From a virus: DNA of 64,000 nt. Made by a program: the position numbers and the translations under genes. Location: IMG/VR virus record IMGVR_UViG_3300009788_000093, positions 1 through 64,000 of that record; one strand, 5' to 3'. The notes beneath the pieces are model-generated. The model was not told the DNA's origin and made no database searches. It saw nothing but the letters and a program-made list of their open reading frames with translations. This document shows, in pieces, positions 18,852-45,469 of this stretch (its first letter is position 1; each line of letters opens with the position of its first letter).

Positions 18852-18930
18852 GGGGATAGATTTGGTATCGACGGGAGTTAAGGCCAACAATGGCAGCGTC
18901 CGGACGTGGGTTCGAATCCCGCTATCTCCA
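18852..18930 (+). ncRNA. tmRNA-like RNA reduced to the tRNA-like domain
   Basis: The 5' end GGGGATAGATTTGGTATCGA followed by CGGG matches the conserved tmRNA 5' end (GGGGxTGATTxTGGATTCGACGGG). The 3' part CGGACGTGGGTTCGAATCCC matches the tmRNA 3' end (CGGACGCGGGTTC...CTCCCGC). GGGGATA pairs with TATCTCC and the T arm is intact. Only about 26 nt connect the halves, folding as GACG/CGTC and GCCA/TGGC. A real tmRNA has about 300 nt there with the tag frame and pseudoknots. This is therefore tag-less, 79 nt long. It could be a ribosome-binding decoy or a degenerate tmRNA; it is not circularly permuted. Confidence 0.65.
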
Positions 18931-19168
18931 CTGACCTGGTGAGGAACAGTGAAAAGGTATGGACGAGTAGCTGTTAGGGAGCGACTGATGGCCTCAGTCG
19001 CCAGAGAGCATGGGGTAGCTGAGCCGTCCATGCGGTGAATATAGCTATTGGGTAATCAGGTCTTAATATCCCCAATTGGCTGAAGAGCTTACAGGAGGGG
19101 GTGGACGTTTTCTAGGTAACTAGGGAATAACACACTTTATACGAATTAAAATAGGAAAGTACGAGGTA
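18931..19168 (+). other. Structured non-coding spacer
   Basis: No gene is seen. ATGGACG (about 18959-18965) pairs with CGTCCAT (about 19025-19031) around a hairpin GCGACTGA/TCAGTCGC. The remainder is AT-rich with no recognisable element. It separates two tRNA-like elements. Confidence 0.4.
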
Positions 19169-19235
19169 GGCATCGCTTGTCAGTTGAGGTGAAACTGTCG
19201 ATTTTAAGGAGCGGGTTCAGTTCCCGTCGGTGCCA
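19169..19235 (+). ncRNA. Non-cloverleaf tRNA-like element
   Basis: The acceptor GGCATCG/CGGTGCC (7 bp, one wobble) and T arm GCGGG-TTCAGTT-CCCGT are intact. The 35 nt between form one hairpin CAGTT/AACTG with a 7-nt loop lacking U33, plus an unpaired segment, so no D plus anticodon cloverleaf can be drawn. It may be a decayed tRNA or a tRNA-like structure, like the element at 111-163. Confidence 0.5.
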
Positions 19236-19344: not shown

Positions 19345-19417
19345 TGCGAAGTAGCTCTAGCGGTAGAGCAGGGGCTTGAAGAGCCTTGTGACGCTGGTTC
19401 GATTCCAGCCTTCGCAG
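19345..19417 (+). tRNA. tRNA-Phe(GAA)
   Basis: Full cloverleaf: acceptor TGCGAAG/CTTCGCA, D arm GCTC/GAGC, anticodon loop TTGAAGA, T arm GCTGG/CCAGC. No CCA is encoded, as in all tRNAs of this cluster. First canonical tRNA of the array. Confidence 0.92.
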
Positions 19418-19598
19418 CAACGGCTCAGCTGCAAACTGATGAGGCTGAACAAGGCCAATAATGCAGGAGCCGATGGTTGCCCAGACCTTGGCAGACTGGA
19501 GGGAAAGCGCAAGCAGTGAGCGTTAGTAACCAGCGAGCCGAAACTGGGAACCCATTCGGGAGAGCGAGTAAGGACAGCTCTATAAAAACAGTCCCTTT
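19418..19598 (+). other. Structured spacer between tRNA-Phe and tRNA-Thr
   Basis: 181 nt without a gene. It contains several pairable blocks, for example CGGCTC 19421-19426 with GAGCCG 19467-19472. A CTGATGAG word resembles a hammerhead core, but the required GAA after stem II is missing. Confidence 0.35.
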
Positions 19599-19673
19599 GC
19601 TACCGTAGCTCAATTTGGCTAGAGCAGCTGCCTTGTAAGCAGCAGGTTACAGGTTCGAGTCCTGTGGGTAGCT
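19599..19673 (+). tRNA. tRNA-Thr(TGT)
   Basis: Acceptor GCTACCG/GGGTAGC (last pair G-G mismatched), anticodon stem GCTGC/GCAGC with loop CTTGTAA, T arm ACAGG/CCTGT. The next gene starts 3 nt downstream. Confidence 0.92.
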
Positions 19674-19675
19674 CT

Positions 19676-19921
19676 ATGAGAATGACAGCATTAAGAAGAG
19701 GGGACGTTGTCCAGCTTAACCCTAATAAGGTTGAGAATTTAGCTTTCTCAGCTTGCTTCATGGTGATAACTGATCCTAAACCGTGGGGCGCTCAAGGGTA
19801 TGTTCAAGACATAGGAACTAGCAGTCAACCAGGTGGCATAGCATATTATCGAGCAAAATGGGAAGAAATGGAGCTTATAGGTAGCGCTGAGTGGACGGTA
19901 GGCGAGGCTGAGGCTATATGA
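19676..19921 (+). CDS. Hypothetical protein, 81 aa
   Basis: ATG 19676 lies immediately after tRNA-Thr, so it is leaderless relative to the processed tRNA; ATG 19682 is an alternative start. The protein is small and beta-rich (MTALRRGDVVQLNP...MVITDPKPWGAQGYVQ), like SH3-type folds. No family recognised. Confidence 0.6.
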   Translation: MRMTALRRGDVVQLNPNKVENLAFSACFMVITDPKPWGAQGYVQDIGTSSQPGGIAYYRAKWEEMELIGSAEWTVGEAEAI

Positions 19922-20133
19922 ATAGTCAATTAGGTAGAACATACGAGCTTATTGCACGTGATGATAGATTAAAGCGTTATTTAGCTCACATTGAAACGCT
20001 ACGAGACCCTATATTTGCGGTTCAACTTGAGGGCATCGTCAAACACTTCGACTTGGACGTTTCTGAGTGCAGGACGAAAGCATCATGTTCTAAGTGTGAA
20101 CGTCGCGAACGTTGCGCAGGTAAAGTAGCATGA
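19918..20133 (+). CDS. Cys-rich small protein, 71 aa
   Basis: ATGA overlap with the previous gene. A helical N-terminus is followed by CRTKASCSKCERRERCAG, four Cys in 15 residues, probably a zinc knuckle. Function unknown. Confidence 0.6.
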   Translation: MNSQLGRTYELIARDDRLKRYLAHIETLRDPIFAVQLEGIVKHFDLDVSECRTKASCSKCERRERCAGKVA

Positions 20134-20144
20134 GGAGGTGAGGC

Positions 20145-20306
20145 ATGTTTAACGAAACACCAGCATTAATTGGTTTAGCTGTTTTGTCTACGGGTATATT
20201 TATGATGTTAATGGCAGCGATAAATGGTCAATATAAAAAAGCGGGGAGCAGCATTAATGGGGGCAACGCAAAAGAGAAAGCCGAAGATAGCGACAACCGG
20301 GCTTAG
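20145..20306 (+). CDS. Single-pass membrane protein, 53 aa
   Basis: ATG behind TGAGGAGGTGAGG, one of the best ribosome sites of the region. Residues about 6-26 form a membrane helix, followed by a polar Lys/Asp/Asn tail. It overlaps the next gene by 50 nt in another frame. Function unknown. Confidence 0.55.
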   Translation: MFNETPALIGLAVLSTGIFMMLMAAINGQYKKAGSSINGGNAKEKAEDSDNRA

Positions 20307-20562
20307 CGAGGAAGTAGTTAAGCCAACGACCAAGGTTACAGTGCCAGACGTGACTAAGGCTATTAAAAAAACTGATGCCGCACTAGCCAAGGTAGATAAC
20401 GTCAAGAAGACGGTTAAGCGTCGAGTTTATAAGAATAAGAGAATAAAAGTTTGTAGCACTTGTGGCAAAGAGGGTTGTGAGTGGCCAGACCGGGCGGGGA
20501 GTAATTACTGGGTATACAAAATAGTCAAAACTTGGTCATTAGAAGATGTAGAGGGGGATTAG
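20257..20562 (+). CDS. Basic protein with C-terminal CxxC, 101 aa
   Basis: The ATG at 20257 is supported by GCGGGGAGCAGC upstream, despite the 50-nt overlap. The N-terminal 60 residues are Lys/Thr/Val-rich and resemble a disordered nucleic-acid-binding tail. The C-terminus has CSTCGKEGCEW. Function unknown. Confidence 0.55.
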   Translation: MGATQKRKPKIATTGLSEEVVKPTTKVTVPDVTKAIKKTDAALAKVDNVKKTVKRRVYKNKRIKVCSTCGKEGCEWPDRAGSNYWVYKIVKTWSLEDVEGD

Positions 20563-20697
20563 ATGCTAGTCGGATTTGTTATGGGTTTCTTTGTATTTGC
20601 CTTAATTGTCATAGTGGCGCTTATGGTTTTTGAGAAATCTAAAATAAAAACAAATGAAACGAAGCACATCAAATATGAAGCTGATAACCGAGAATAG
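20563..20697 (+). CDS. Single-pass membrane protein, 44 aa
   Basis: ATG directly after the previous stop, with GAGGGGGAT upstream. Residues about 2-23 form a membrane helix followed by a charged tail. Function unknown. Confidence 0.55.
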   Translation: MLVGFVMGFFVFALIVIVALMVFEKSKIKTNETKHIKYEADNRE

Positions 20698-21091
20698 AGA
20701 TAAACTCTACATCAAGCAAGCAGTAGCTATGAGCATGCTTGAGGAGGCGATACGTGTATTCCCTAGAGAGGCTTGTGGTATGCTAGGCGGGTCACGGCGT
20801 AGGGTCGCTAAAGTATATCCTACAAAGAACCTGGAAAAGGGTAACATGACTTACGAAGTTGACCCGGTTGAGGCGTTTAACGTTATCAAGCAAATGCGTG
20901 AAGAGGGTAATGAGCTTATTGCTAGTTGGCACTCACACCCAATGAGTGAAGCTTACCCCTCAATGATAGATACGGCTAAAGCAGTTGACGCTGGCCTCGT
21001 TTACGTGATCGTATCCTTATCTGATATCGATATAAGGGCATACTATATTGAAGGCGATTGGATCAAGGAACTTGAAGTTATTATTGAATAA
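20654..21091 (+). CDS. JAMM/MPN metalloprotease (Mov34/M67 family)
   Basis: The JAMM motif is complete: Glu in FPREACGMLGG (about residue 38), then H-S-H-P in ASWHSHPMSEAYPSMIDTAK with the following Ser and Asp. Zinc isopeptidases of this family remove ubiquitin-like modifiers or sulfur-carrier tails. Phage versions are usually fused to tail protein K/NlpC, whereas this 145-aa copy stands alone, far from the tail genes. Start ATG 20654, or 20678 (MKLITENRD), which trims 8 residues; both overlap the previous gene. No ubiquitin-like partner is seen in the window. Confidence 0.85.
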   Translation: MKRSTSNMKLITENRDKLYIKQAVAMSMLEEAIRVFPREACGMLGGSRRRVAKVYPTKNLEKGNMTYEVDPVEAFNVIKQMREEGNELIASWHSHPMSEAYPSMIDTAKAVDAGLVYVIVSLSDIDIRAYYIEGDWIKELEVIIE

Positions 21092-21128
21092 AGGTTTATT
21101 ATTGGGGATAGCGGGGTAAGAACTACCT

Positions 21129-21365
21129 ATGTTAATACTTTTGAGAATCTCTTTAAGTTTATTTTTAGGTGGCGGAGCAGCGTTGACGTTAGCGGCTGCC
21201 CTTCAAGGAGAGCGTATTGTTGGCGCAATAGGTTGCCTGATAATCGTCCTCGCAAGTGGCTTCATATATATTGGCGAACTAGTCAAAGAACACCAGAAGT
21301 GGTTGGCCATTAGCCGTGAAAAAGAACTTACCAATTGGAAGAACGAATTACGTGGGCGATTATGA
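21129..21365 (+). CDS. Two-pass small membrane protein, 78 aa
   Basis: ATG behind TAGCGGGGTAAG. Hydrophobic helices at about residues 2-23 and 30-51 are followed by a charged, coiled-coil-like tail ending KNELRGRL. It ends 9 nt before tRNA-Ala. Function unknown. Confidence 0.6.
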   Translation: MLILLRISLSLFLGGGAALTLAAALQGERIVGAIGCLIIVLASGFIYIGELVKEHQKWLAISREKELTNWKNELRGRL

Positions 21366-21374
21366 AATCAGTAA

Positions 21375-21447
21375 GGGTGTATAGCTCAATTGGGAGAGCA
21401 GTGGCTTTGCAAGCCAAAGGTTGTAGGTTCAAGTCCTATTACATCCA
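21375..21447 (+). tRNA. tRNA-Ala(TGC)
   Basis: Acceptor GGGTGTA/TACATCC, D arm GCTC/GAGC, anticodon loop TTTGCAA, T arm GTAGG/CCTAT. Start of the main tRNA run. Confidence 0.92.
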
Positions 21448-21545
21448 CAAGGGGGGCTGCAAGACCCCCGAGATAGGTTAGTGAGGTTGTGGGACGAGGG
21501 ATCGTGGGTCGTGAGGCTAACGATGATTAGCTAATCTATCGACAT
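21448..21545 (+). other. Structured spacer, tRNA-Ala to tRNA-Tyr
   Basis: A hairpin GGGGG/CCCCC at about 21452-21469, then GATAGGTTAG (21472-21481) paired with CTAATCTATC (21531-21540, one wobble) just before the next tRNA. No gene. Confidence 0.5.
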
Positions 21546-21625
21546 AGGAGCGCTGGGTATTGGTGAACCCAAGTGCCTGTAAAGCACCCGTTGCGGCTGT
21601 GTAGGTTCAACTCCTACCGCTCCTA
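21546..21625 (+). tRNA. tRNA-Tyr(GTA)
   Basis: Acceptor AGGAGCG/CGCTCCT, anticodon stem AGTGC/GCACC with loop CTGTAAA, T arm GTAGG/CCTAC. The longer variable region is as expected for bacterial tRNA-Tyr. Confidence 0.9.
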
Positions 21626-21628
21626 CAA

Positions 21629-21689
21629 GCTCAACCCTTTCGTATGCATGCGGATGGGGGGAGTCCCGTCATGCCTCCGTGGGTTGGGC
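21629..21689 (+). other. Spacer stem between tRNA-Tyr and tRNA-Ile
   Basis: GCTCAACCC (21629-21637) pairs with GGGTTGGGC (21681-21689), 9 bp with one wobble, starting 3 nt after tRNA-Tyr. No gene is present up to 21743. Confidence 0.5.
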
Positions 21690-21743
21690 GAGGTGCAACA
21701 CGTTCGATAAGGTGTTTGTGGATGTATCCCATGCGGGACGCCA

Positions 21744-21815
21744 GGAATGGTAGCTCAGTGGTAGAGCGGCAAGCTGATAACTTGTAGGTCGGAGGTTCGA
21801 TTCCTTCACGTTCCA
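21744..21815 (+). tRNA. tRNA-Ile(GAT)
   Basis: Acceptor GGAATGG/ACGTTCC (last pair mismatched, one wobble), D arm GCTC/GAGC, anticodon loop CTGATAA, T arm GGAGG/CCTTC. Confidence 0.9.
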
Positions 21816-21818
21816 CAA

Positions 21819-21875
21819 GGTGAGAGGCCGGGTAAAAGTAGCATATACTTCTCCGCCGGAAAGTCCCCTCTCGCC
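21819..21875 (+). other. Spacer stem between tRNA-Ile and tRNA-Trp
   Basis: GGTGAGAG (21819-21826) pairs with CTCTCGCC (21868-21875), 8 bp with one wobble, spanning almost the whole spacer. Confidence 0.5.
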
Positions 21876-21879
21876 GTAT

Positions 21880-21950
21880 GCGCTACAGCGTAGGCTGTGC
21901 CAGACCGTCTCCAAAACGGTCTTGACCGGGTTCGAATCCTGGGTGGCGTG
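21880..21950 (+). tRNA. tRNA-Trp(CCA)
   Basis: Acceptor GCGCTAC/GTGGCGT (with G-T pairs), anticodon stem ACCGT/ACGGT with loop CTCCAAA, T arm CCGGG/CCTGG. The D arm is short. Confidence 0.88.
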
Positions 21951-21953
21951 CTA

Positions 21954-22032
21954 GAGGAACTGGGAAAAAGATAGATTCACCTCTTCTTACTTACTCCTAG
22001 TTTGGTCGCTTTGGGTTCCGACCCAGTTCCTC
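21954..22032 (+). other. Spacer stem between tRNA-Trp and tRNA-Gly
   Basis: GAGGAACTGGG (21954-21964) pairs perfectly with CCCAGTTCCTC (22022-22032), 11 bp, 3 nt after one tRNA and 4 nt before the next. It looks like an RNase III-type processing stem (inference). Confidence 0.55.
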
Positions 22033-22036
22033 TTAT

Positions 22037-22108
22037 GCGACTATCGCACAATGGTAGTGCTGCAGCCTTCCAAGCTGTTATTTGGGGGTTCGAGTCCCTC
22101 TAGTCGCT
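22037..22108 (+). tRNA. tRNA-Gly(TCC)
   Basis: Acceptor GCGACTA/TAGTCGC, D arm GCAC/GTGC, anticodon loop CTTCCAA, T arm GGGGG/CCCTC. Confidence 0.92.
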
Positions 22109-22110
22109 CT

Positions 22111-22154
22111 GGTCGGGAGTTTTTTGGGACTCACCTCGCTTTCTTCTCCCGACC
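22111..22154 (+). other. Spacer stem between tRNA-Gly and tRNA-Ser(TGA)
   Basis: GGTCGGGAG (22111-22119) pairs perfectly with CTCCCGACC (22146-22154), 9 bp with a pyrimidine-rich loop, filling the spacer. Confidence 0.55.
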
Positions 22155-22158
22155 TTTA

Positions 22159-22251
22159 GGAAGAATGGCAGAGTCTGGATTATTGCGGCGGTCTTGAAAA
22201 CCGTTGGTCCGTAGCGATACGGGTCCGTGGGTTCGAATCCTACTTCTTCCT
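22159..22251 (+). tRNA. tRNA-Ser(TGA)
   Basis: Class II tRNA: acceptor GGAAGAA/TTCTTCC, anticodon stem GCGGT/ACCGT with loop CTTGAAA, long variable arm with CCGTA/TACGG, T arm GTGGG/CCTAC. Confidence 0.92.
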
Positions 22252-22253
22252 CT

Positions 22254-22326
22254 GTGGCCGTATCCAATAGGTAACGGAACGGGGCCGTGACCCCCGGTTA
22301 TGTGGGTTCAAATCCCATCGGTCACC
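22254..22326 (+). tRNA. tRNA-His(GTG)
   Basis: Acceptor GTGGCCG/CGGTCAC with discriminator C73, as in bacterial tRNA-His. The anticodon stem CGGGG/CCCCG encloses loop CCGTGAC. Position 33 is C, not the near-universal U, which is unusual. No G-1 is encoded. Confidence 0.82.
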
Positions 22327-22330
22327 CCAG

Positions 22331-22402
22331 ACCATCGTAGCTCAATGGTAGAGCAGCACCCTGTTAAGGTGACGGTTCCAGGTTCGAGTCCTGGGGATGG
22401 TG
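22331..22402 (+). tRNA. tRNA-Asn(GTT)
   Basis: Acceptor ACCATCG/GGATGGT (last pair G-G), D arm GCTC/GAGC, anticodon loop CTGTTAA, T arm CCAGG/CCTGG. Confidence 0.92.
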
Positions 22403-22556
22403 CGATAGCGGCGACAAGCCCGTATTATGTCAATGCATCACGCTAGAGTGCGCTCCTGAAATAGCGGCTCATAGAATATCGCCCTGGTATGTGATGTGTT
22501 CAAGTCTCGGGTATAGTTCAGGCTCCCTGCCCGAGGCAACCAAGGGCTTAGTGTTT
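22403..22556 (+). ncRNA. Structured spacer RNA with CGACAAGCCCGT motif
   Basis: 154 nt without a gene. It carries CGACAAGCCCGT (22412-22423), repeated exactly at 22809-22820 in the other long spacer of this array. A CTCGGG/CCCGAG hairpin lies near 22505-22535. The shared core in two non-coding segments suggests a small repeated RNA element of unknown role. Confidence 0.4.
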
Positions 22557-22641
22557 GGAAAGATGGCTGAGAGGTTTAAGGCGCTGGTTTGCTAAACCAG
22601 AGGGGAGAAATCCTCCGTAGGTTCGAATCCTGCTCTTTCCG
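22557..22641 (+). tRNA. tRNA-Ser(GCT)
   Basis: Class II: acceptor GGAAAGA/TCTTTCC, anticodon stem CTGGT/ACCAG with loop TTGCTAA, long variable arm, T arm GTAGG/CCTGC. Confidence 0.92.
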
Positions 22642-22647
22642 CGTTAT

Positions 22648-22721
22648 CTGGATGTAGCTCAGTTTGGTGGAGCGCTCGGTTTGGGGCCGAGAAGACGGAG
22701 GTTCGAATCCTTCCATCCGGA
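22648..22721 (+). tRNA. tRNA-Pro(TGG)
   Basis: Acceptor CTGGATG/CATCCGG, D arm GCTC/GAGC, anticodon stem CTCGG/CCGAG with loop TTTGGGG, T arm GGAGG/CCTTC. Confidence 0.92.
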
Positions 22722-22743
22722 CTTAGGTTTATATTCCCGTTAT

Positions 22744-22800
22744 AGGGGTATAAAGTAATTGGTAGTGCGGCGTGTGAGAAACGCTGAAGTTCTACGTTAT
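22744..22800 (+). pseudogene. Degenerate tRNA-like element, anticodon GAG (Leu-like)
   Basis: AGGGGTA-TA, a D-loop-like AATTGGTAG, and a good anticodon arm GGCGT/ACGCT with loop GTGAGAA (anticodon GAG, T33 present) are seen. No T arm or matching acceptor 3' strand follows, so this is a broken tRNA or only the 5' portion of one. Confidence 0.4.
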
Positions 22801-23007
22801 AAGTTGGCCGACAAGCCCGTTAGTATGCGCCCATAGGTAGCGAGGGAAGCGGGTAGTCGAGGGCGAAAGTCTTAAATTTGCAGACCTTTAAATGCTGCCC
22901 GCCAGAGAAAACCATGGTACTGGTTGGGGACTTATCTTCGGATGGGAGCGGTGTAAGTCCGTCAGAAAACGCCAACAAGTCGGTTTGAATCCGGCCACCA
23001 CCAACAT
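22801..23007 (+). ncRNA. Structured spacer RNA ending in a T-arm-like hairpin
   Basis: It contains CGACAAGCCCGT (22809-22820, shared with 22412-22423). A GGACTTA/TAAGTCC stem (about 22929-22961) follows, then GTCGG-TTTGAAT-CCGGC (about 22979-22995) shaped like a T arm. No acceptor partner is found. A short open frame here is taken as spurious because it runs through tRNA-Leu. Confidence 0.35.
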
Positions 23008-23080
23008 AGGCTGGTATTCCAACGGCAGAGAAACTGGTTTTAGAAACCAGGTAGTGAGAGTTCGAATCTCTCCTAGCCTA
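23008..23080 (+). tRNA. tRNA-Leu(TAG), atypical short variable loop
   Basis: Acceptor AGGCTGG/CTAGCCT, anticodon stem CTGGT/ACCAG with loop TTTAGAA, T arm GAGAG/CTCTC. The variable region is only 5 nt (GTAGT), whereas bacterial tRNA-Leu normally has a long class II arm. Charging specificity is therefore uncertain. Confidence 0.8.
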
Positions 23081-23086
23081 CTTTGC

Positions 23087-23158
23087 AGGCGAGTAACTCA
23101 GCGGTAGAGTGGTAGGTTTACATCTTACTGGTCGGGGGTTCGATCCCCTCCTTGCCTA
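23087..23158 (+). tRNA. tRNA-Val(TAC)
   Basis: Acceptor AGGCGAG/CTTGCCT, anticodon stem GTAGG/CTTAC with loop TTTACAT, T arm GGGGG/CCCTC. Confidence 0.9.
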
Positions 23159-23176
23159 CTGCAGAAAGGAATATAT

Positions 23177-23623
23177 ATTAAGATTTGTGGACCGTATATT
23201 AGGTCGGATGGGCGAAAGCAATTAATCATTAAGTTTGCTGACGGAAGAAGAACTACTAAATCTTATCCAAGATATTTGATGGAACAGCATTTAGGCAGGG
23301 AGTTGACGGCGGATGAAACAGTAGACCATATCAATCGGGACTTCACGGATGATCGAATTGAAAACCTAAGAATAGTAAGCCATAAGCAGCATGGGCTAGA
23401 GGATGCTAGAAGGGCTAAGCGGATAAAGGTCAACTGTATTTGGTGCGGGGAAGAGCTTCTTAGAGTTCCGTGTAAGGTGCGGGCAAATGCTAAACAAGGA
23501 AAGGCTGGCCCTTTTTGTGAAAGTTGCGGAGGTAAATATGGTCAACAAATACGGGCCGGGGCGATTGATAAATTAGCCCCACAGCCAAGCGTAGAAACTG
23601 AATATTATTATTTAGATAAATAA
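23177..23623 (+). CDS. HNH homing endonuclease with ATT start, 148 aa
   Basis: The frame is coherent well upstream of the first TTG (23276): it encodes KICGPYIRSDGRKQLIIKFA and YPRYLMEQHLGRELT before the HNH core. The only plausible start is ATT 23177, 8 nt after AGAAAGGA. The core ETVDHINRDFTDDRIENLRIVSHKQH carries the HNH pattern D-H-I-N...N-L-R-x-x-x-x-x-x-H. A C-terminal zinc ribbon follows (CIWCGEE...CESCGG). Phage HNH enzymes of this kind nick DNA and home into neighbours. It sits between tRNA-Val and tRNA-Leu, a classic location for such intruders. Confidence 0.8.
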   Translation: MKICGPYIRSDGRKQLIIKFADGRRTTKSYPRYLMEQHLGRELTADETVDHINRDFTDDRIENLRIVSHKQHGLEDARRAKRIKVNCIWCGEELLRVPCKVRANAKQGKAGPFCESCGGKYGQQIRAGAIDKLAPQPSVETEYYYLDK

Positions 23624-23627
23624 TTTT

Positions 23628-23709
23628 GGGCTGGTGGTGGAATTGGAATACACAACAGGTTTAAGCCCTGTTGCCTTCGGGATTGAGGGTTCGACTCCCT
23701 CCCGGCCCA
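23628..23709 (+). tRNA. tRNA-Leu(TAA)
   Basis: Class II: acceptor GGGCTGG/CCGGCCC, anticodon stem ACAGG/CCTGT with loop TTTAAGC, variable arm with TGCCTTCGGGA, T arm GAGGG/CCCTC. Confidence 0.92.
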
Positions 23710-23743
23710 CAGGTTTAATGTTGAAATATAGAATGGGGGAAAT

Positions 23744-24448
23744 GTGTTTGCGCTAAAGAATGTGACGGAGCGGATATCGAGTGAAGAAATAAACACGGAG
23801 GTGTTACAGCTTGAGTTGGCGGTTGAGCAAGCAAAGGAACTTCAAATACCGACTTCTCGTTATGATCACGAATTAAAAACAATTGAAATTAAGCTACTTG
23901 TTGCCAACATACAAAACAATAACGATAAATTTTGTGTTCCACTTGAGAATATTTTGTTAGAGGGAGGGACTGAAAGATACGATAGCACCCCGATATATGG
24001 CTTACTGGCTAATAAGGAAAGAGTATTCTGTAAATACAAAGGTCGAACTACACGGCGGTTTAATCGAACCCCTTTGAAAGATTTCACCGAAGAAAGAGGG
24101 ATGGTTCCAGCGGATATCCTTATGACTATAAATAAGTGGAAACAAGAATTAGGTGTAAAGGTAAATGATTGTACTTTTACTGTGTATACTCCTAATTATG
24201 ATCACTCAATACGTTACTCAGACCCACTTATAGTTATAGAGTTTGCGACTGGTCAAAAATATGCAATTGCTGAGTGGGAAGAATTTTACGATTACAAGCC
24301 AAGCTTGGGGAATATACGGATAAACGCAATTGATCATTTGCGGGTATTTTGTAGGGAGCACCCTGATGGGGTCGGAATAACTGCTGTTATTTCTGGCATA
24401 GCCTTATTATTTGGATTAGTCTTTGCTGTTCCTTTATTATTTTATTAA
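23744..24448 (+). CDS. Unknown tail-anchored membrane protein, 234 aa
   Basis: GTG start behind ATGGGGGAAAT. The cytosolic region has a helical N-terminus (EEINTEVLQLELAVEQAKEL) and a mixed beta domain. One C-terminal membrane helix spans about residues 210-234 (TAVISGIALLFGLVFAVPLL). I recognise no family. It sits inside the tRNA array, its stop abutting tRNA-Arg(TCT) directly. Confidence 0.7.
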   Translation: MFALKNVTERISSEEINTEVLQLELAVEQAKELQIPTSRYDHELKTIEIKLLVANIQNNNDKFCVPLENILLEGGTERYDSTPIYGLLANKERVFCKYKGRTTRRFNRTPLKDFTEERGMVPADILMTINKWKQELGVKVNDCTFTVYTPNYDHSIRYSDPLIVIEFATGQKYAIAEWEEFYDYKPSLGNIRINAIDHLRVFCREHPDGVGITAVISGIALLFGLVFAVPLLFY

Positions 24449-24520
24449 GGGTTATTAGCTCAAAGGACAGAGCATCGGGTTTCTACCCCGAGAGTCAGGG
24501 TTCGAATCCTTGATAGCCCA
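24449..24520 (+). tRNA. tRNA-Arg(TCT)
   Basis: Acceptor GGGTTAT/ATAGCCC, anticodon stem TCGGG/CCCGA with loop TTTCTAC, T arm CAGGG/CCTTG. Acceptor and D-arm sequence are nearly identical to the next tRNA, suggesting duplication. Confidence 0.92.
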
Positions 24521-24521
24521 C

Positions 24522-24593
24522 GGGTTATTAGCTCAATGGAGAGAGCACCGGACTACGAATCCGGGAGTATAGGTTCGAATCCTTTATAGCCCA
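24522..24593 (+). tRNA. tRNA-Arg(ACG)
   Basis: Acceptor GGGTTAT/ATAGCCC, anticodon stem CCGGA/TCCGG with loop CTACGAA, T arm TAGG/CCTT. The A34 in ACG normally needs TadA editing to inosine. Confidence 0.92.
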
Positions 24594-24597
24594 CTGA

Positions 24598-24670
24598 GGG
24601 TCATTAGCTCATCAGGTAGAGCATCGGACTTTTAATCCGGTGGTGCGAGGTTCGAGACCTCGATGGCCTA
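24598..24670 (+). tRNA. tRNA-Lys(TTT)
   Basis: Acceptor GGGTCAT/ATGGCCT (two G-T pairs), anticodon stem TCGGA/TCCGG with loop CTTTTAA, T arm CGAGG/CCTCG. Confidence 0.92.
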
Positions 24671-24683
24671 CTAGATTTAACAA

Positions 24684-24756
24684 GGCAATATAGCTTAGTG
24701 GCTAAAGCACCACCCTGTCACGGTGGGGGACGTGGGTTCGAATCCCATTATTGTCG
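24684..24756 (+). tRNA. tRNA-Asp(GTC)
   Basis: Acceptor GGCAATA/TATTGTC, anticodon stem CCACC/GGTGG with loop CTGTCAC, T arm GTGGG/CCCAT, discriminator G as usual for Asp. Confidence 0.92.
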
Positions 24757-24796
24757 CAAAGGTTTAGGAATTGGTTAACCGGGGGATAAACTAAAT

Positions 24797-24895
24797 ATGG
24801 ATAGATTAAACATAAGCATTCTTATTTTGTCGATAGGATTAGGGGCAACTAGCGCTGCTTTAGTAATACACATAATGTGGGGGAGTCACTTATAA
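24797..24895 (+). CDS. Single-pass membrane miniprotein, 32 aa
   Basis: ATG behind CCGGGGGATAAAC, between two tRNAs. Apart from MDRLN and WGSHL at the ends it is one hydrophobic helix. Function unknown. Confidence 0.5.
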   Translation: MDRLNISILILSIGLGATSAALVIHIMWGSHL

Positions 24896-24901
24896 ATTCA
24901 T

Positions 24902-24974
24902 AGCGGAGTAGAGCAGTGGACAGCTCGCCAGCCTCATAAGCTGTAGGTCGCCGGTTCGAATCCGGCCTCCGCCA
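24902..24974 (+). tRNA. tRNA-Met(CAT), possibly initiator or tRNA-Ile2
   Basis: Anticodon stem CCAGC/GCTGT with loop CTCATAA, T arm GCCGG/CCGGC. In the acceptor, A1 faces C72, an unpaired first position reminiscent of initiator tRNA, but the three G-C pairs of the initiator anticodon stem are absent. It could equally be elongator Met or a lysidine-type Ile tRNA. Confidence 0.85.
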
Positions 24975-25091
24975 CTAGGGTAAAGGTTCGGCAACTAGTT
25001 CAGAACGACACAAGACCACGGAAACCGTTGCGTTGCTGGCTGAGGGCATACTTGGAATAGCTTTCTAGGGTGCACCTACTATCCCTTTTAT
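24975..25091 (+). other. Structured spacer, tRNA-Met to tRNA-Glu
   Basis: 117 nt with no gene. AGGG near the start and CCCT near the end can pair, and internal GGCAAC/GTTGC blocks suggest folding as in the other long spacers. Confidence 0.35.
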
Positions 25092-25164
25092 GGCGCTATC
25101 ATCTAACGGCTAGGATCCAAGATTTTCAATCTTGTCAAGGCGGGTTCGATTCCCCCTAGCGCTG
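25092..25164 (+). tRNA. tRNA-Glu(TTC)
   Basis: Acceptor GGCGCTA/TAGCGCT, anticodon stem CAAGA/TCTTG with loop TTTTCAA, T arm GCGGG/CCCCC with one C-C mismatch. Confidence 0.9.
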
Positions 25165-25172
25165 CTGTTTAT

Positions 25173-25244
25173 GGCTACGTGGCCGAGTGATTAGGCAACG
25201 GTTTGCAAAACCGTTCCACGCTGGTTTGAATCCAGCCGTAGCTT
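25173..25244 (+). tRNA. tRNA-Cys(GCA)
   Basis: Acceptor GGCTACG/CGTAGCT, anticodon stem ACGGT/ACCGT with loop TTGCAAA, T arm GCTGG/CCAGC. Last tRNA of the array. Confidence 0.92.
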
Positions 25245-25348
25245 CTATCGGATAGCGAGGTCGTGCTCTTGCTTTTAGCTTTTACGGGCTCCGATGTTTG
25301 AGGTCCAAGGGGGTTGATAACCCTTTAAGGATCCGGTTACGAATTTAG

Positions 25349-40536: not shown

Positions 40537-42024
40537 ATGACGGACAAAAAAGATAGAGTATTGAAGCTCGATACAGGTGAGGTCGGCAAAACCGGCCTAA
40601 ATATTTTTGATGGTCGGCTTTTTGAGGAGCAGTTACGGCAGCTTCAAAGTGAAACTGAACGACGCAGGGTTTATAAAGAAATGCAAGCCAATGACCCCAC
40701 AATTGGTGCTATCCTTTTTGCTATTGAGATGCTTATTCGGCAAGTCCCCTGGACGTTTCAAGCAGCAAGCGATGACCCTAAGGATATTGAAGCTAAGGAG
40801 TTTATGGAGGGCGTTATTAATGATATGTCACAATCCTGGGAAGATACTTTGGCTGAAATTCTATCATTCCTACCTTGGGGCTGGTCATATCATGAGATTG
40901 TCTATAAGTTTAGAAACGGGCGGGATAAGAACGCAAGTAAGCGCAGCCGGTTTAATGACGGGAAAATTGGTTGGCGGAAATTGCCTATTCGGTCACAGGA
41001 CTCACTAGATCACTGGGAAATGGATGATGAGGGCGGAGTAAATGCCATGATTCAAAACCCACCGCCTGAATACCAACTTCTTACGATCCCAATAACAAAG
41101 GCGCTATTGTTCCGAACGAGCGTTCATAAGGGTAGCCCTGAAGGTGAATCTATCTTGAGGAGCATATATCAATCCTGGTTCCTAAAGAAGCGCATTCAAA
41201 CTTTTGAAGCTATCGGCATTGAACGTGATTTGGCTGGCTTCCCGGTTTTAACTGTTCCGTCAGAATGGACGGATGCTAATGCTCCGCAAGGGCTAAAAAA
41301 CGCTTATGCAGATGCCAAAACTATTGTGCAAAACATTAAGCGTGACGAGCAGGAGGGCGTAGTCCTTCCCGCTATTTTCGATGATAACAACAACAAACTA
41401 TTAGAGCTTGCATTGCTCAATTCAGGCGGTAAGCGGAATTTTGATACAGAGGCGATTATCAATCGCTATGACCAGCGTATTGCGATGACAGTATTAGCGG
41501 ACTTTATCTTCTTGGGCACGAAGTCGGTAGGCTCATTTGCCCTTAGTAGCTCTAAGACTGAGATGTTTGCCGCCGCTATTGGTGCTTGGACTAATATGAT
41601 TGCGGACGTATTTAACCGGCACGCAATACCACGGTTGTTTGAACTTAACGGCGAAAACCTTGAGGAACTACCGAAGTTAGTTCCGGGCGATATTGAAACG
41701 CCAGACTTAGCTGAACTCGGTGCTTATCTTGGCAACCTTACTGGCGTAGGGATTAACCTGCAAGGTGATGTCGAGCTTGAAAATTACTTACGGGATGTTG
41801 CTGGTTTACCTATGGCTCCTGAAGACGAAGATAGGGTTATTCCGGCTGCCGCAGAAGTGCCTGAGGAAGGTGTAGCGACTACTAAACCTAAGCCGAAACC
41901 TAAGCCTAAAACAGAACCCAAGGAAGAACCGAAAACACCTCAACCTGACGGCAAGGAAGAGTTGGTCGAAGCAGTTAAGGTAATGAAAAGTGCAGTCCTT
42001 AGTGCCTTAAAATCTGATGAATAA
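40537..42024 (+). CDS. Portal protein (DUF935/Mu gp29-like)
   Basis: ATG behind TAGAGGAAT, 495 aa. ANDPTIGAILFAIEMLIRQVPW, the FLPWGWSYHEIVYK segment and HKGSPEGESILRSIYQSWFLKK match DUF935-type portals. The C-terminus is a Pro/Lys/Glu-rich, probably disordered tail (KPKPKPKPKTEPKEEPK). It forms the dodecameric ring at the packaging vertex. Position between TerL and MuF is canonical. Confidence 0.92.
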   Translation: MTDKKDRVLKLDTGEVGKTGLNIFDGRLFEEQLRQLQSETERRRVYKEMQANDPTIGAILFAIEMLIRQVPWTFQAASDDPKDIEAKEFMEGVINDMSQSWEDTLAEILSFLPWGWSYHEIVYKFRNGRDKNASKRSRFNDGKIGWRKLPIRSQDSLDHWEMDDEGGVNAMIQNPPPEYQLLTIPITKALLFRTSVHKGSPEGESILRSIYQSWFLKKRIQTFEAIGIERDLAGFPVLTVPSEWTDANAPQGLKNAYADAKTIVQNIKRDEQEGVVLPAIFDDNNNKLLELALLNSGGKRNFDTEAIINRYDQRIAMTVLADFIFLGTKSVGSFALSSSKTEMFAAAIGAWTNMIADVFNRHAIPRLFELNGENLEELPKLVPGDIETPDLAELGAYLGNLTGVGINLQGDVELENYLRDVAGLPMAPEDEDRVIPAAAEVPEEGVATTKPKPKPKPKTEPKEEPKTPQPDGKEELVEAVKVMKSAVLSALKSDE

Positions 42025-45000
42025 ACTTGCCCTTTTAAAAGCATTTGATGATTTTATAGAAAAAGTCGAACCGGCTTGGCAGAAGTTTAATGATATTGCT
42101 GACGAATACCTTCCTGCTGTTCAGGAAGCGACGGAACAGGCTTTAGGCTTATTTGAAAAAGACGTTAGGATGGGGTTCCTTGAGGGAGCCTTAAAAGTTC
42201 AAGATCCTATCGGGGCCGAGATAGCGATTAACTTCGCGGGTATGGAGAAAAAGCTTATGCCTGTTGCGAAGGTATTAGTGGAAACTTTAATGGATGGCGC
42301 AGAAGCTTCAGTTGAGGATATCTTTGCCGTATCTAGGGGTGCTGAAGGTGTTACTCCGGCTATCGAGAAGCATGGATCAAGTGACGATCCTAATTATGGG
42401 AGGTATCATCCGGGAGCAGCTGCCCCGATAACTGTTTTCCATGGAACCGTGAGTAAGTATTTTAATTCAATCAACAATAAAGGAATAAAGTTTAAGCCAC
42501 CTCAACGAACAGGAGATACGGAAGCTTGGAAGGAATTGGGTGTTGATTGGTATGAGGGTGAAAATGGTCAAGCGGTTTTTGTAACCAAGGACTTCAAGGC
42601 AGCTAAAGGAATGGCTAATTTTGCTACAGAAGCATATGAGGAGCGTACCGGAAGATCAAGTATCCCTATTATTTTAAGAGTTGAATTACCTCAAAGCATA
42701 GGAGCTAAGTTAAAACAAGATGAGAATCTTGCCGCAGGCTTGAAGCTTATAGGGCAAGATATTAAGCCTGAATGGATAAAATCTTCGAGTCGTGAAGGTA
42801 ATGATGGTGTTTGGCGTGGTTCCCGATTCCGGAAGGCTGATAACACAACCTTGTTCATGCTGGCCCTAATTGACTTACTGCCTCCTATCGAAATTGAAAA
42901 AGCCGATGCACTCCTCGGCGTAGATGTTGCTGCTGGGTTGGGCATATCTTTTGAGCAAGCTGAGAGGTGGGCTGCTGAGAATGCGGCCATAATGGTTACT
43001 GCTGTTACTGAGCAAACGAAGTTAGGCGTGCGGAGCATTATAGCAAGATCTATAAATGAAGGTATTGTTCCGAAAGCCGCAGCTAGGGAAATACGACAAA
43101 TAGTTGGCCTTACGGACAGACAAGCTAATGCCGTAATAAATTTCAAGCGTGACCTCGAAGATCAAATGGCTAGGGGAAAAAGCCCGTTCAAGACAGTACC
43201 GCTAACGCAAGAACGCATCGACCGGATGACAGAAAAATTCCGTAAAAAGCACTTGAAACTACGATCTGAGATGATTGCTAGAACCGAAACCATACGCTCC
43301 TCAAATATGGGGCAACAAGCTATCTGGGAGCAAGCAGCTGATAGGGGCTTAATAGATGAAAGCGTAGCCGTTAGACGATGGGTGGTCACCCCAGACGATC
43401 GTCTTTGCGACTTTTGCAGACCTATGGATGGGCAAATTGTTCCACTAAGGGGTTTATTTGAGTCTGGAACAGTGGAACTTCAAAGAGGTGGAACTAGAGC
43501 GTTTAACCCAACACTGACGCCACCGCTACACCCACAATGCTTAGTTAGTTATAAGACGCCTATTTTTACGTCAAAGGGCTGGAAGCAAGTAGGGCAAATT
43601 AAAGTTGATGATTTAGTTCTTACGCATAAAGGTAGGTTTCGCAAGGTAACTAAGCTTATTCAAACGCCTAAGCAAACCCCAACTATTGTAAAGATTAAAT
43701 TGTATGGTTGCGCGACTTTGACCTTGACTGATAATCACCCAATTTTAATCGACGGGGAGTGGGTTGAGGCTAAGGATGCGAAACCAGGCCAAAAGATTAA
43801 GTATATGGCGGCTAAGTGTGTTCGTTGTGGTAAAGATATCCCGATGGATAATAAGTATTGTTCTGATAGGTGTTGCAGCCTTGATATAACTGATAGGCAG
43901 TGGAAGTCGGAAGAACATAGGCGGTTAATATCAGCAAAAACTTCAGCTCAATTACGCAGAGAATACAGCAACGGAACAAGGGACGGCGCTGCCATTACCA
44001 AGAAAGCTCATGAAGCTACTAGGGAAATGGCTGCCGAAGGAAAACACCCTTTTCAACAAGATTGGGTAATTGAGAAAAATAAGCTTGTAACAAATTTACC
44101 TCAACACAGAAAAGCAAGTTCTGAACGTATGAAGAAAAATAACCCTAGTTTGATCCCAGAAGTTCGTAAATGTATGACCGAATCTTACAAGAAAACTATG
44201 CTTGCGCACCCAGAAAAGCACCCTAATTCCATTATGGCTCAAAAAGGGTTTATGAGTTCCCTTGAAAAAAGAATGAAGATAATATTGGATGAATTAGGCT
44301 TGGAATATGTACCCCAGCAACCTATACTAAATTATTTTGTCGATTTTGGATTGCCGAAATATAAAGTTGCTATCGAAGTAGATGGTAATTATTGGCATCA
44401 AGATAAGGAAAAAGATTCGGTCAGACAAGTAAAAATAGAAAAAGAAGGATGGACTGTTTTAAGGTTTTCAGAAGATGAAATGAAGGATGAAAGTTTAGTT
44501 AAAGATGAAGCAAAAAGAATCCTCATGAATCATAATGAAGAATATTCTTTTGTAGAAGTTGAAATAACTAAGGTTGAGAAATATCAACCTACACGAAAAA
44601 TTAAATTATTCAATTTTTCCGTAGAAGAAGATGAATCTTATATAGCTAAAGGGTTTGTTGTTCATAATTGCCGTTGCGCCATGGTATTAGATATCTCACC
44701 AACGGGAGTTATTGCAGGGGTGGATAAGCCAACCCCTATTGCCACATTACCTAAGAAGTTTAGCGATTTTAAAAACGTGCGAGAAAACTTAAGGTCAGGA
44801 TCAAATGTTTCTCGTGTGGCTGAGTTCAACGACGAAGAGTGGTTTCTAAAAAGACCGGGAGATACTGAAGTAATCAGCGAAATTGTATCATCAAAGATAG
44901 GTAAATATTTTGGCGTGAATGTGCCAGCAGTAGTTTCCTTCAAGCATAGAGGAGATTGGTGGGTGGCAACAAAATCATTGAAAGAAAAGTTCCCTGGAGC

Positions 45001-45469
45001 CAGAACAGCAAGAATGTTTGAGAAAAATGTGCCAGAAGGGATAAAATTCACAAGCGAAATATCAAAAAATGTAGGCTGGCAGAGAATGAAGCTTTTTGAT
45101 GTTTTCATAGGAAACGAAGATCGTCATTTAGGAAATTATATGATTGTCGGTTCAAAGGGAAATATTAATGAGATAGAAAATATATTGGCTATCGATCATG
45201 GCCTAGCTACTTTTGGTGAAGATATTGCGGTCAATGTTCCTGCAATATTTTCCTCTCCTAGCCTTAGGTCGCGCTTAACTCCAGATTTATTGGAAATGCG
45301 ATCCGAAATAATTGTTTTATTAAATAATGTAACGCAAGAATTGTCTGATGATTGGGTTTCCGATATTCCTGAGGAATTACTTATTGATGCATTTGGTGTT
45401 GGCGGAGATTTGTTTGATGCAGGACATTTCGTTTTTCGGGCTAAAACGTTATTGGAGATATTAACATGA
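42017..45469 (+). CDS. MuF head protein fused to ART-like and HipA-like kinase domains, intein-split
   Basis: 1150 aa precursor; ATG overlaps the portal end. Domains in order: helical N-terminus (about 1-115). ART-like domain (about 118-280) with VFHGTVSKYFNSI, GQAVFVTKDFKAAKGMA. MuF helical/head domain (about 300-507), ending CDFCRPMDGQIVP...LHPQ. Intein (508-884). Remaining MuF CRC (885-887). Kinase-like domain (about 905-1140) with EEWFLKRPG (Lys), GNEDRHLGNYM (catalytic Asp) and AIDHGLA (metal Asp), as in HipA/PI3K-type kinases. Splicing would leave 773 aa. MuF proteins are packaged and some carry toxins; a dual ART plus kinase effector is inference. Confidence 0.85.
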   Translation: MNKLALLKAFDDFIEKVEPAWQKFNDIADEYLPAVQEATEQALGLFEKDVRMGFLEGALKVQDPIGAEIAINFAGMEKKLMPVAKVLVETLMDGAEASVEDIFAVSRGAEGVTPAIEKHGSSDDPNYGRYHPGAAAPITVFHGTVSKYFNSINNKGIKFKPPQRTGDTEAWKELGVDWYEGENGQAVFVTKDFKAAKGMANFATEAYEERTGRSSIPIILRVELPQSIGAKLKQDENLAAGLKLIGQDIKPEWIKSSSREGNDGVWRGSRFRKADNTTLFMLALIDLLPPIEIEKADALLGVDVAAGLGISFEQAERWAAENAAIMVTAVTEQTKLGVRSIIARSINEGIVPKAAAREIRQIVGLTDRQANAVINFKRDLEDQMARGKSPFKTVPLTQERIDRMTEKFRKKHLKLRSEMIARTETIRSSNMGQQAIWEQAADRGLIDESVAVRRWVVTPDDRLCDFCRPMDGQIVPLRGLFESGTVELQRGGTRAFNPTLTPPLHPQCLVSYKTPIFTSKGWKQVGQIKVDDLVLTHKGRFRKVTKLIQTPKQTPTIVKIKLYGCATLTLTDNHPILIDGEWVEAKDAKPGQKIKYMAAKCVRCGKDIPMDNKYCSDRCCSLDITDRQWKSEEHRRLISAKTSAQLRREYSNGTRDGAAITKKAHEATREMAAEGKHPFQQDWVIEKNKLVTNLPQHRKASSERMKKNNPSLIPEVRKCMTESYKKTMLAHPEKHPNSIMAQKGFMSSLEKRMKIILDELGLEYVPQQPILNYFVDFGLPKYKVAIEVDGNYWHQDKEKDSVRQVKIEKEGWTVLRFSEDEMKDESLVKDEAKRILMNHNEEYSFVEVEITKVEKYQPTRKIKLFNFSVEEDESYIAKGFVVHNCRCAMVLDISPTGVIAGVDKPTPIATLPKKFSDFKNVRENLRSGSNVSRVAEFNDEEWFLKRPGDTEVISEIVSSKIGKYFGVNVPAVVSFKHRGDWWVATKSLKEKFPGARTARMFEKNVPEGIKFTSEISKNVGWQRMKLFDVFIGNEDRHLGNYMIVGSKGNINEIENILAIDHGLATFGEDIAVNVPAIFSSPSLRSRLTPDLLEMRSEIIVLLNNVTQELSDDWVSDIPEELLIDAFGVGGDLFDAGHFVFRAKTLLEILT
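43538..44668 (+). other. Intein with Vsr-like homing endonuclease in the MuF gene
   Basis: 377 residues. First residue Cys508 (CLVSYKTPIFTSKGWKQVGQ, block A-like). Block B-like LTDNHPILIDGEWVEAKD follows, then a C-terminal ENEDSYIAKG-like block (EEDESYIAKGFVVHN), Asn884 and +1 Cys885. The flanks rejoin as HPQ-CRC, the conserved MuF motif. The central insert has a Cys-rich knuckle (CVRCGKD...CSDRCC), NUMOD-like helices and SLEKRMKIILDELG...VAIEVDGNYWHQ...GWTVLRFSEDEM. That is the same EDxHD/Vsr-like nuclease type as the freestanding genes at 28162 and 29895. Confidence 0.92.

What the first reader, a model, noticed from the sequence alone, without database searches (positions are those of the whole stretch)
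21448..22154. Every long inter-tRNA spacer is closed by an end-to-end stem
Five consecutive spacers have complementary ends a few nt from the flanking tRNAs: GATAGGTTAG/CTAATCTATC, GCTCAACCC/GGGTTGGGC, GGTGAGAG/CTCTCGCC, GAGGAACTGGG/CCCAGTTCCTC, GGTCGGGAG/CTCCCGACC. The stems differ in sequence but keep the geometry, so structure is being preserved. They may be RNase III entry sites or circularisable spacer RNAs.
Basis: seen in the sequence. Interest (0 to 1): 0.65.

Follow-up and report, generated by a model that had tools for sequence, protein, structure and literature searches.

The report
Stem-closed spacer RNAs between phage tRNAs
In this phage's string of tRNA genes, three of the gaps between tRNAs would fold into RNA hairpins whose ends sit a fixed few bases from the neighbouring tRNAs, a pattern common in phage tRNA clusters but not in a sample of bacterial ones, so these gaps probably behave as small separate RNA units rather than as filler.

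Summary
Three consecutive spacers (Ile-Trp, Trp-Gly, Gly-Ser) are closed end to end by perfect 9, 12 and 9 bp stems, 2-3 nt after one tRNA and 3-4 nt before the next, each at p about 0.001 or less. In Ala-Tyr and Tyr-Ile a strong stem closes only part of the spacer. The other non-coding long spacers are not closed, so "every" is wrong. The pattern is general: in an IMG/VR survey 41 of 314 phage inter-tRNA spacers are closed (2.1 expected from shuffles), against 2 of 178 in bacteria (1.0 expected). The gaps are constant (0-2 nt and about 4 nt). In other phages closing stems carry compensatory changes. Some closed spacers there are missed tRNAs, others are Y RNAs (tRNA-mimicking Ro-binding RNAs); most are unidentified. 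The window's closed spacers show no Y-RNA motif, tRNA half, Ro gene or Rfam match, and no relative was found to test covariation directly. Best reading: small self-closed RNA units in the tRNA operon, released by ordinary tRNA end-processing. RNase III entry or circularisation has no specific support. By-product: a "TTACAGCAA" family of Y-RNA-like permuted tRNA mimics in phages without a detectable Ro gene.

The parts
21375..22251 (+). tRNA-Ala, Tyr, Ile, Trp, Gly, Ser: the part of the 22-tRNA array (19345-25245) that flanks the closed spacers; discriminator base followed by C, no encoded CCA
   Evidence: ARAGORN and Rfam RF00005; 3' ends listed
21451..21469 (+).
   Evidence: RNAfold
21472..21540 (+). 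Ala-Tyr spacer, second hairpin: 11 bp GATAGGTTAGT (21472-21482) / GCTAATCTATC (21530-21540), ends 5 nt before tRNA-Tyr; closes only the downstream two thirds of the spacer
   Evidence: one-end-anchored p 0.005
21629..21689 (+). Tyr-Ile spacer: 9 bp GCTCAACCC (21629-21637) / GGGTTGGGC (21681-21689), starts 3 nt after tRNA-Tyr, ends 54 nt before tRNA-Ile; closes only the upstream half
   Evidence: p 0.055
21819..21875 (+). Ile-Trp closed spacer: 9 bp GGTGAGAGG (21819-21827) / CCTCTCGCC (21867-21875), gaps 3 and 4 nt
   Evidence: MFE z -3.6; intact in the fold of tRNA-spacer-tRNA
21953..22033 (+). Trp-Gly closed spacer: 12 bp AGAGGAACTGGG (21953-21964) / CCCAGTTCCTCT (22022-22033), gaps 2 and 3 nt
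   Evidence: p 0.0005 or less
22111..22154 (+). Gly-Ser closed spacer: 9 bp GGTCGGGAG (22111-22119) / CTCCCGACC (22146-22154), gaps 2 and 4 nt
   Evidence: MFE z -4.6

Best explanation
The closed spacers are small self-contained RNA units (44-81 nt from stem end to stem end) that sit between tRNAs in one polycistronic tRNA transcript. Their terminal stem pairs the two ends of the spacer and leaves only the unpaired linkers that tRNA end-processing needs: 2-3 nt after the upstream tRNA and 3-4 nt before the downstream tRNA. The 3'-end processing of the upstream tRNA and RNase P cleavage of the downstream tRNA would then free the unit with paired ends, while the stem keeps spacer sequence from misfolding with the tRNAs. 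Shown: the stems, their improbability, their geometry, the same design in many other phages, its absence from a bacterial sample, and compensatory changes in closed spacers of other phages. Inferred: transcription as one RNA, the nucleases, release, and that the units of this window do the same as those of other phages. Whether the freed unit also has a job of its own is left open.
For: Three strict stems at p about 0.001 or less each. Survey of IMG/VR arrays: 62 strong terminal helices against 10 in shuffles and 7.8 with swapped halves, with the outer pair 0-2 nt from the upstream tRNA and 3-6 nt (mode 4) from the downstream tRNA. 41/314 phage spacers against 2.1 expected, bacterial tRNA operons 2/178 against 1.0 expected. 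108/898 against 5.8 over all phage loci held, of which 65 outside the window with no recognised tRNA part, gaps 0-2 (53 of 65) and 3-6 (52 of 65). Compensatory changes in closed spacers without a recognised tRNA part: L350/L385, 18 bp, 3 compensatory and 0 broken; L385/L377, 6 compensatory and 1 broken; L076/L057, 4 compensatory and 0 broken while the interior is 87% alike. Other ncRNAs do sit in such arrays: Y RNAs and GOLLD (L076).
Against: No relative with this array was found, so covariation of the window's own stems is untested. Ala-Tyr and Tyr-Ile do not fit the simple form, and Phe-Thr, Asn-Ser, Pro-Leu and Met-Glu are not closed, so the array does not need the feature everywhere. Other pairs of similar spacers break the stem (for example L324/L389, 6 of 10 pairs). 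No expression or cleavage data.
Confidence: 0.55

Rival explanations
1. The closed spacers are functional non-coding RNAs in their own right, tRNA mimics or Y-RNA-like scaffolds, for which the terminal stem is the protein-binding or end-protecting part.
For: In other phages part of the closed spacers are this: Y RNAs with a permuted tRNA-like module and a GGGYCGA..TCGGTTATC motif, in phages with a Ro (TROVE) gene, 10 of 10 tested; a second TTACAGCAA family has the same design.
Against: The window's closed spacers carry no T arm or tRNA half, no Ro-type motif near a tRNA and no TTACAGCAA, no Rfam match; no Ro gene was found in the 101-kb record, which may be incomplete. The five spacers share no clear common sequence.
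Confidence: 0.25
2. RNase III entry sites: the stem is cut to start processing of the tRNA precursor.
For: The stems are hairpins at the ends of inter-tRNA spacers, where an endonuclease could separate the tRNAs.
Against: Tight tRNA pairs in the same array need no such site (gaps of 0-12 nt). Perfect helices of 9-12 bp are short for RNase III (general knowledge). A stem that starts 2-3 nt from one tRNA and ends 3-4 nt from the next matches tRNA end-processing at least as well.
Confidence: 0.08
3. Circularisable spacer RNAs: the stem brings the ends together for ligation.
For: The ends are held together. The same record holds an Rnl2-type RNA ligase domain at 99378-99878.
Against: RNA ligase families are not tied to the permuted, closed elements in other phages: PF09511 in 1 of 20, RtcB in 1 of 20, and PF09414 in a minority of both groups. 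No splice-site motif in the window's spacers.
Confidence: 0.04
4. Remnants of tRNA genes or inserted inverted-repeat elements, with no present function.
For: Phage tRNA arrays gain and lose genes; the Pro-Leu and Asn-Ser spacers hold tRNA-like debris. The lengths are tRNA-like.
Against: Perfect 9-12 bp stems with constant gaps would not survive decay. The five stems are unrelated to each other, which argues against one mobile element. Compensatory changes occur in the class.
Confidence: 0.06
5. Chance.
For: None beyond the fact that two of the five claimed stems are not really end-to-end.
Against: Three consecutive stems at p about 0.001 or less each; 41 against 2.1 in other phages.
Confidence: 0.02

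Closest known systems
Bacterial and phage Y RNAs of the YrlA type (Rfam RF02553; Chen et al. 2014, RNA 20:1715, cited in PMC12282133 and PMC4726728)
   Same: Non-coding RNA whose 5' and 3' ends pair into a terminal stem; in phages such as Myrna and Phabba it lies inside the tRNA array between two tRNAs with the same small gaps.
   Different: Y RNAs carry a Ro-binding motif and a tRNA-like module and accompany a Ro gene. The window's spacers have none of these.
Circularly permuted tRNA genes of algae and archaea (PMC3978253, PMC3218864)
   Same: 3' half before 5' half with paired flanks: the order seen in the Y-RNA-like elements of other phages.
   Different: Not present in the window; in phages the permuted modules score as Y-RNA-like, so maturation to a tRNA is not implied.
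GOLLD RNA in phage tRNA arrays (Rfam RF02032)
   Same: Large structured RNA among phage tRNAs; found in L076, whose array also has two closed spacers.
   Different: About 400 nt, own family; no match in the window.
tRNA punctuation in mitochondrial transcripts (general knowledge)
   Same: Non-tRNA units freed by cutting out the flanking tRNAs.
   Different: Those units are mostly mRNAs and rRNAs and are not closed by terminal stems as a rule.

Membership tests
Y RNA (YrlA type) | 5' and 3' ends pair into a terminal stem | tested here: met
   Ile-Trp, Trp-Gly, Gly-Ser
Y RNA (YrlA type) | Ro-binding motif (GGGYCGA..TCGGTTATC as seen in phage Y RNAs) by the stem | tested here: not met
   Only one GGTTATC[TG] in the window and not within 300 nt of a tRNA
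Y RNA (YrlA type) | tRNA-like module (T arm, acceptor, D arm in permuted order) | tested here: not met
Y RNA (YrlA type) | Ro/TROVE gene in the same genome | tested here: not met
   PF05731 absent from the 101-kb record, which may be incomplete
Circularly permuted tRNA gene | 3' half followed by 5' half with complementary acceptor strands | tested here: not met
RNase III processing site | Cleavage within the stem by RNase III | not testable with these tools
   Needs an experiment
Any Rfam 15 family | Match at the gathering score | tested here: not met
   In the array only tRNA and one tmRNA match; none in the closed spacers
Closed inter-tRNA spacer class of phages (defined here) | Terminal helix of at least 7 bp with outer pair within 6 nt of both flanking tRNAs, above shuffles | tested here: met
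   Three of the five spacers
Closed inter-tRNA spacer class of phages (defined here) | Compensatory changes among relatives | tested here: inconclusive
   Seen in other phages; no relative of this array found

The most novel reading that the evidence does not exclude
Phage tRNA operons carry an unrecognised set of small non-coding RNAs, closed by a terminal stem and spaced like tRNAs, freed by tRNA processing and acting in the infected cell independently of Ro, for instance as tRNA mimics or decoys; the three closed spacers here are members.
Probability: 0.2. Interest if true: 0.75.

Novelty: new variant of a known kind. Interest (0 to 1): 0.5.

Why it matters
Spacers in phage tRNA clusters are usually treated as filler. 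If many of them are closed RNA units, phages may carry a set of small RNAs that annotation misses, and the fixed gaps give a direct rule for how polycistronic tRNA transcripts are laid out for processing. The rule can be tested in cultured phages: Mycobacterium phage Asterius has an 18-bp closed spacer between tRNA-Asp and tRNA-Met in a region that is at least 95% identical in most of about 190 related records.

Tried and rejected
(1) Finding relatives of this array for a direct covariation test: the JAB-like protein (one weak hit), the major-capsid-like protein (29 loci, none with an array like this one), the 234-aa ORF, a concatenation of five neighbouring ORFs, and a Ser-His junction 20-mer; none gave a homologous array. 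(2) For a while I read the permuted tRNA modules of other phages as a new class of circularly permuted tRNA genes. Corrected when a Sebata element proved to lie beside a Ro gene, Ro/TROVE was found in 10 of 10 phages of the TCGGTTATC family, and RF02553 gave sub-threshold matches. (3) Phage RNA ligase as partner of the permuted elements: not consistently present. (4) Anti-Shine-Dalgarno mimicry: one of five spacers (Gly-Ser, p 0.001), and none of 65 closed spacers in other phages, so probably incidental. (5) Covariation from C1 mycobacteriophages: too similar to be informative. (6) Annotated phage survey: about a dozen groups looked at; closed spacers in Asterius, Phabba, Kela, CeilingFan and KIL3, none in A511, phi38:1, Gary and RBC63 at p 0.05.

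Full report
Context. The window is bases 1-64000 of a 101,279-bp linear virus record. It holds 22 tRNA genes at 19345-25245 by ARAGORN, confirmed by Rfam. The finding concerns the stretch from tRNA-Ala to tRNA-Ser.

Observation. All five pairs of arms are present. Three spacers are closed end to end: Ile-Trp (9 bp), Trp-Gly (12 bp) and Gly-Ser (9 bp), with 2-3 nt between the upstream tRNA and the stem and 3-4 nt between the stem and the downstream tRNA. Against dinucleotide shuffles and against random same-length segments of the window each has p between 0.0003 and 0.0011, and two of the three keep their stem intact when folded with both flanking tRNAs (in Trp-Gly the fold pairs the flanking tRNAs with each other around the intact stem). 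In Ala-Tyr a first GGGGG/CCCCC hairpin precedes an 11-bp hairpin; in Tyr-Ile the 9-bp stem closes only the first half of the spacer. The non-coding spacers Phe-Thr, Asn-Ser, Pro-Leu and Met-Glu have no significant closing stem, so the title claim 'every' does not hold.

Is it general? I took 120 IMG/VR loci in which two T loops lie at the distance of a tRNA pair with a spacer of roughly 50-80 nt and measured all inter-tRNA spacers in them. 62 strong terminal helices were found against 10 expected from shuffles and 7.8 from swapped halves, with the outer pair concentrated 0-2 nt after the upstream tRNA and 3-6 nt (mode 4) before the downstream tRNA. With a stricter definition, 41 of 314 phage spacers are closed (2.1 expected). 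Bacterial genomes sampled with the same pattern gave 2 of 178 (1.0 expected). So the feature is common in phage arrays and not seen above chance in this bacterial sample. Over all phage loci held, 108 of 898 distinct spacers are closed (5.8 expected; this larger set includes loci chosen by motif and so is not an unbiased rate). Of these, 65 outside the window have no recognised tRNA part and keep the same gaps.

What are the closed spacers of other phages? Some are canonical tRNAs missed by ARAGORN (9 of 108). Some contain a tRNA in permuted order: T arm and 3' acceptor strand first, then 5' acceptor strand and D arm. The anticodon stem, not used in the selection, is restored across the split in 91 of 156, against 47 with swapped halves. 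I first took these for permuted tRNA genes. The evidence then pointed elsewhere: an element in phage Sebata lies next to a Ro gene; the motif GGGYCGA..TCGGTTATC resembles the Ro-binding motif of Y RNAs (from memory); 10 of 10 phages of this family tested have a Ro/TROVE gene; and elements of Myrna, Sebata and SM23 match Rfam YrlA below its gathering score (37-40 bits). Y RNAs that mimic tRNAs are known from bacteria and mycobacteriophages (Chen et al. 2014, cited in PMC12282133). These closed spacers are therefore a known kind.

A second family carries TTACAGCAA next to the closing stem. In 45 of 49 strict permuted members the stem is at least 6 bp directly at the motif, with 26 different arm sequences and all Watson-Crick types at several pairs. 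For all 113 entries 80 have at least 6 bp, against 27 with swapped arms. None of 9 phages of this family tested has a TROVE gene, and one member (L304) matches YrlA over its whole length at 48.9 bits, below the gathering score of 69. Cultured relatives appear to include Enterococcus phages (by similarity only, the elements there were not checked one by one). I found no description of it in the open-access library.

Covariation in closed spacers without a recognised tRNA part: L350/L385, 18 bp with 3 compensatory and 0 broken; L385/L377 with 6 compensatory and 1 broken; L076/L057 with 4 compensatory and 0 broken, interior 87% alike. Other pairs break the stem, so not all are conserved.

Back to the window. 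Its closed spacers contain no T arm, tRNA half, Ro motif or TTACAGCAA, no Rfam match, share little sequence with one another, and no TROVE gene was found in the record. They belong to the unidentified part of the class. No relative of this array could be found, so selection on these particular stems is inferred from the class.

Mechanism. The constant gaps suggest a layout in which tRNAs and closed units alternate, each with paired ends and short single-stranded linkers that the tRNA 3'-end machinery and RNase P can use. The unit would be freed with paired ends. This is inference; the steps shown are the structure, its improbability, its geometry, its distribution and, in other phages, its covariation. 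RNase III entry and circularisation have no specific support.

Verdict. A real feature, correctly noticed in outline but overstated, belonging to a wider phage pattern of which one part is known (Y RNAs) and the larger part is not identified.

Noticed in passing
L304:3655-3779; L318:4030-4190; L288-L406 (IMG/VR loci): A family of Y-RNA-like, permuted tRNA-mimic RNAs with TTACAGCAA beside a strongly covarying closing stem, in phages where no Ro/TROVE gene was found (0 of 9); sub-threshold match to Rfam YrlA in L304.
   Followed up: partly
L087:3747-3810, L087:4184-4237, L074:2111-2175: Short closed spacers with the same ACAGCAA motif and, by eye, only an anticodon-arm-like hairpin inside.
   Followed up: partly
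L282:6672-6814 (Mycobacterium phage Phabba); L529 (Sebata): Y-RNA-like elements that are not annotated as such; in Sebata a hypothetical protein is annotated over it, next to a Ro gene.
   Followed up: yes
L350/L385/L377 and L076/L057 spacers: Related structured RNAs of 110-130 nt with compensatory closing stems in tRNA arrays and no Rfam match at E 0.001 in the spacer; possible new RNA families.
   Followed up: partly
window 18852-18933: Match to the Rfam tmRNA model (54.6 bits) of only 82 nt: tRNA-like ends of a tmRNA without a messenger part.
   Followed up: no
window 19169-19235: Sub-threshold tRNA match (25.4 bits) that looks as if it lacks a normal D arm.
   Followed up: no
window 22404-22556 and 22723-23007: Asn-Ser and Pro-Leu spacers share CGACAAGCCCGT and hold tRNA-like debris (a T arm at about 22979-22995 without a matching 5' half).
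   Followed up: partly
window 24797-24895: A 32-codon ORF (MDRLNISILILSIGLGATSAALVIHIMWGSHL) preceded by GGGGG fills most of the Asp-Met spacer; looks like a small membrane peptide.
   Followed up: no
window 19345-25245: No tRNA-Gln among the 22; no encoded CCA, but the base after the discriminator is C in nearly all.
   Followed up: partly
window 22109-22158: The Gly-Ser loop GGACTCACCTCGCTTTCTT resembles the 3' tail of 16S rRNA (p 0.001); not seen in closed spacers of other phages.
   Followed up: yes
G000:C1:99378-99878 (outside the window): Rnl2-type RNA ligase domain (PF09414, 65.5 bits) in the same virus record.
   Followed up: no
window 42017-45469 and 23276-23623: By eye, an intein-like insert in a head-protein ORF, and an HNH-like ORF inside the tRNA array.
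   Followed up: no
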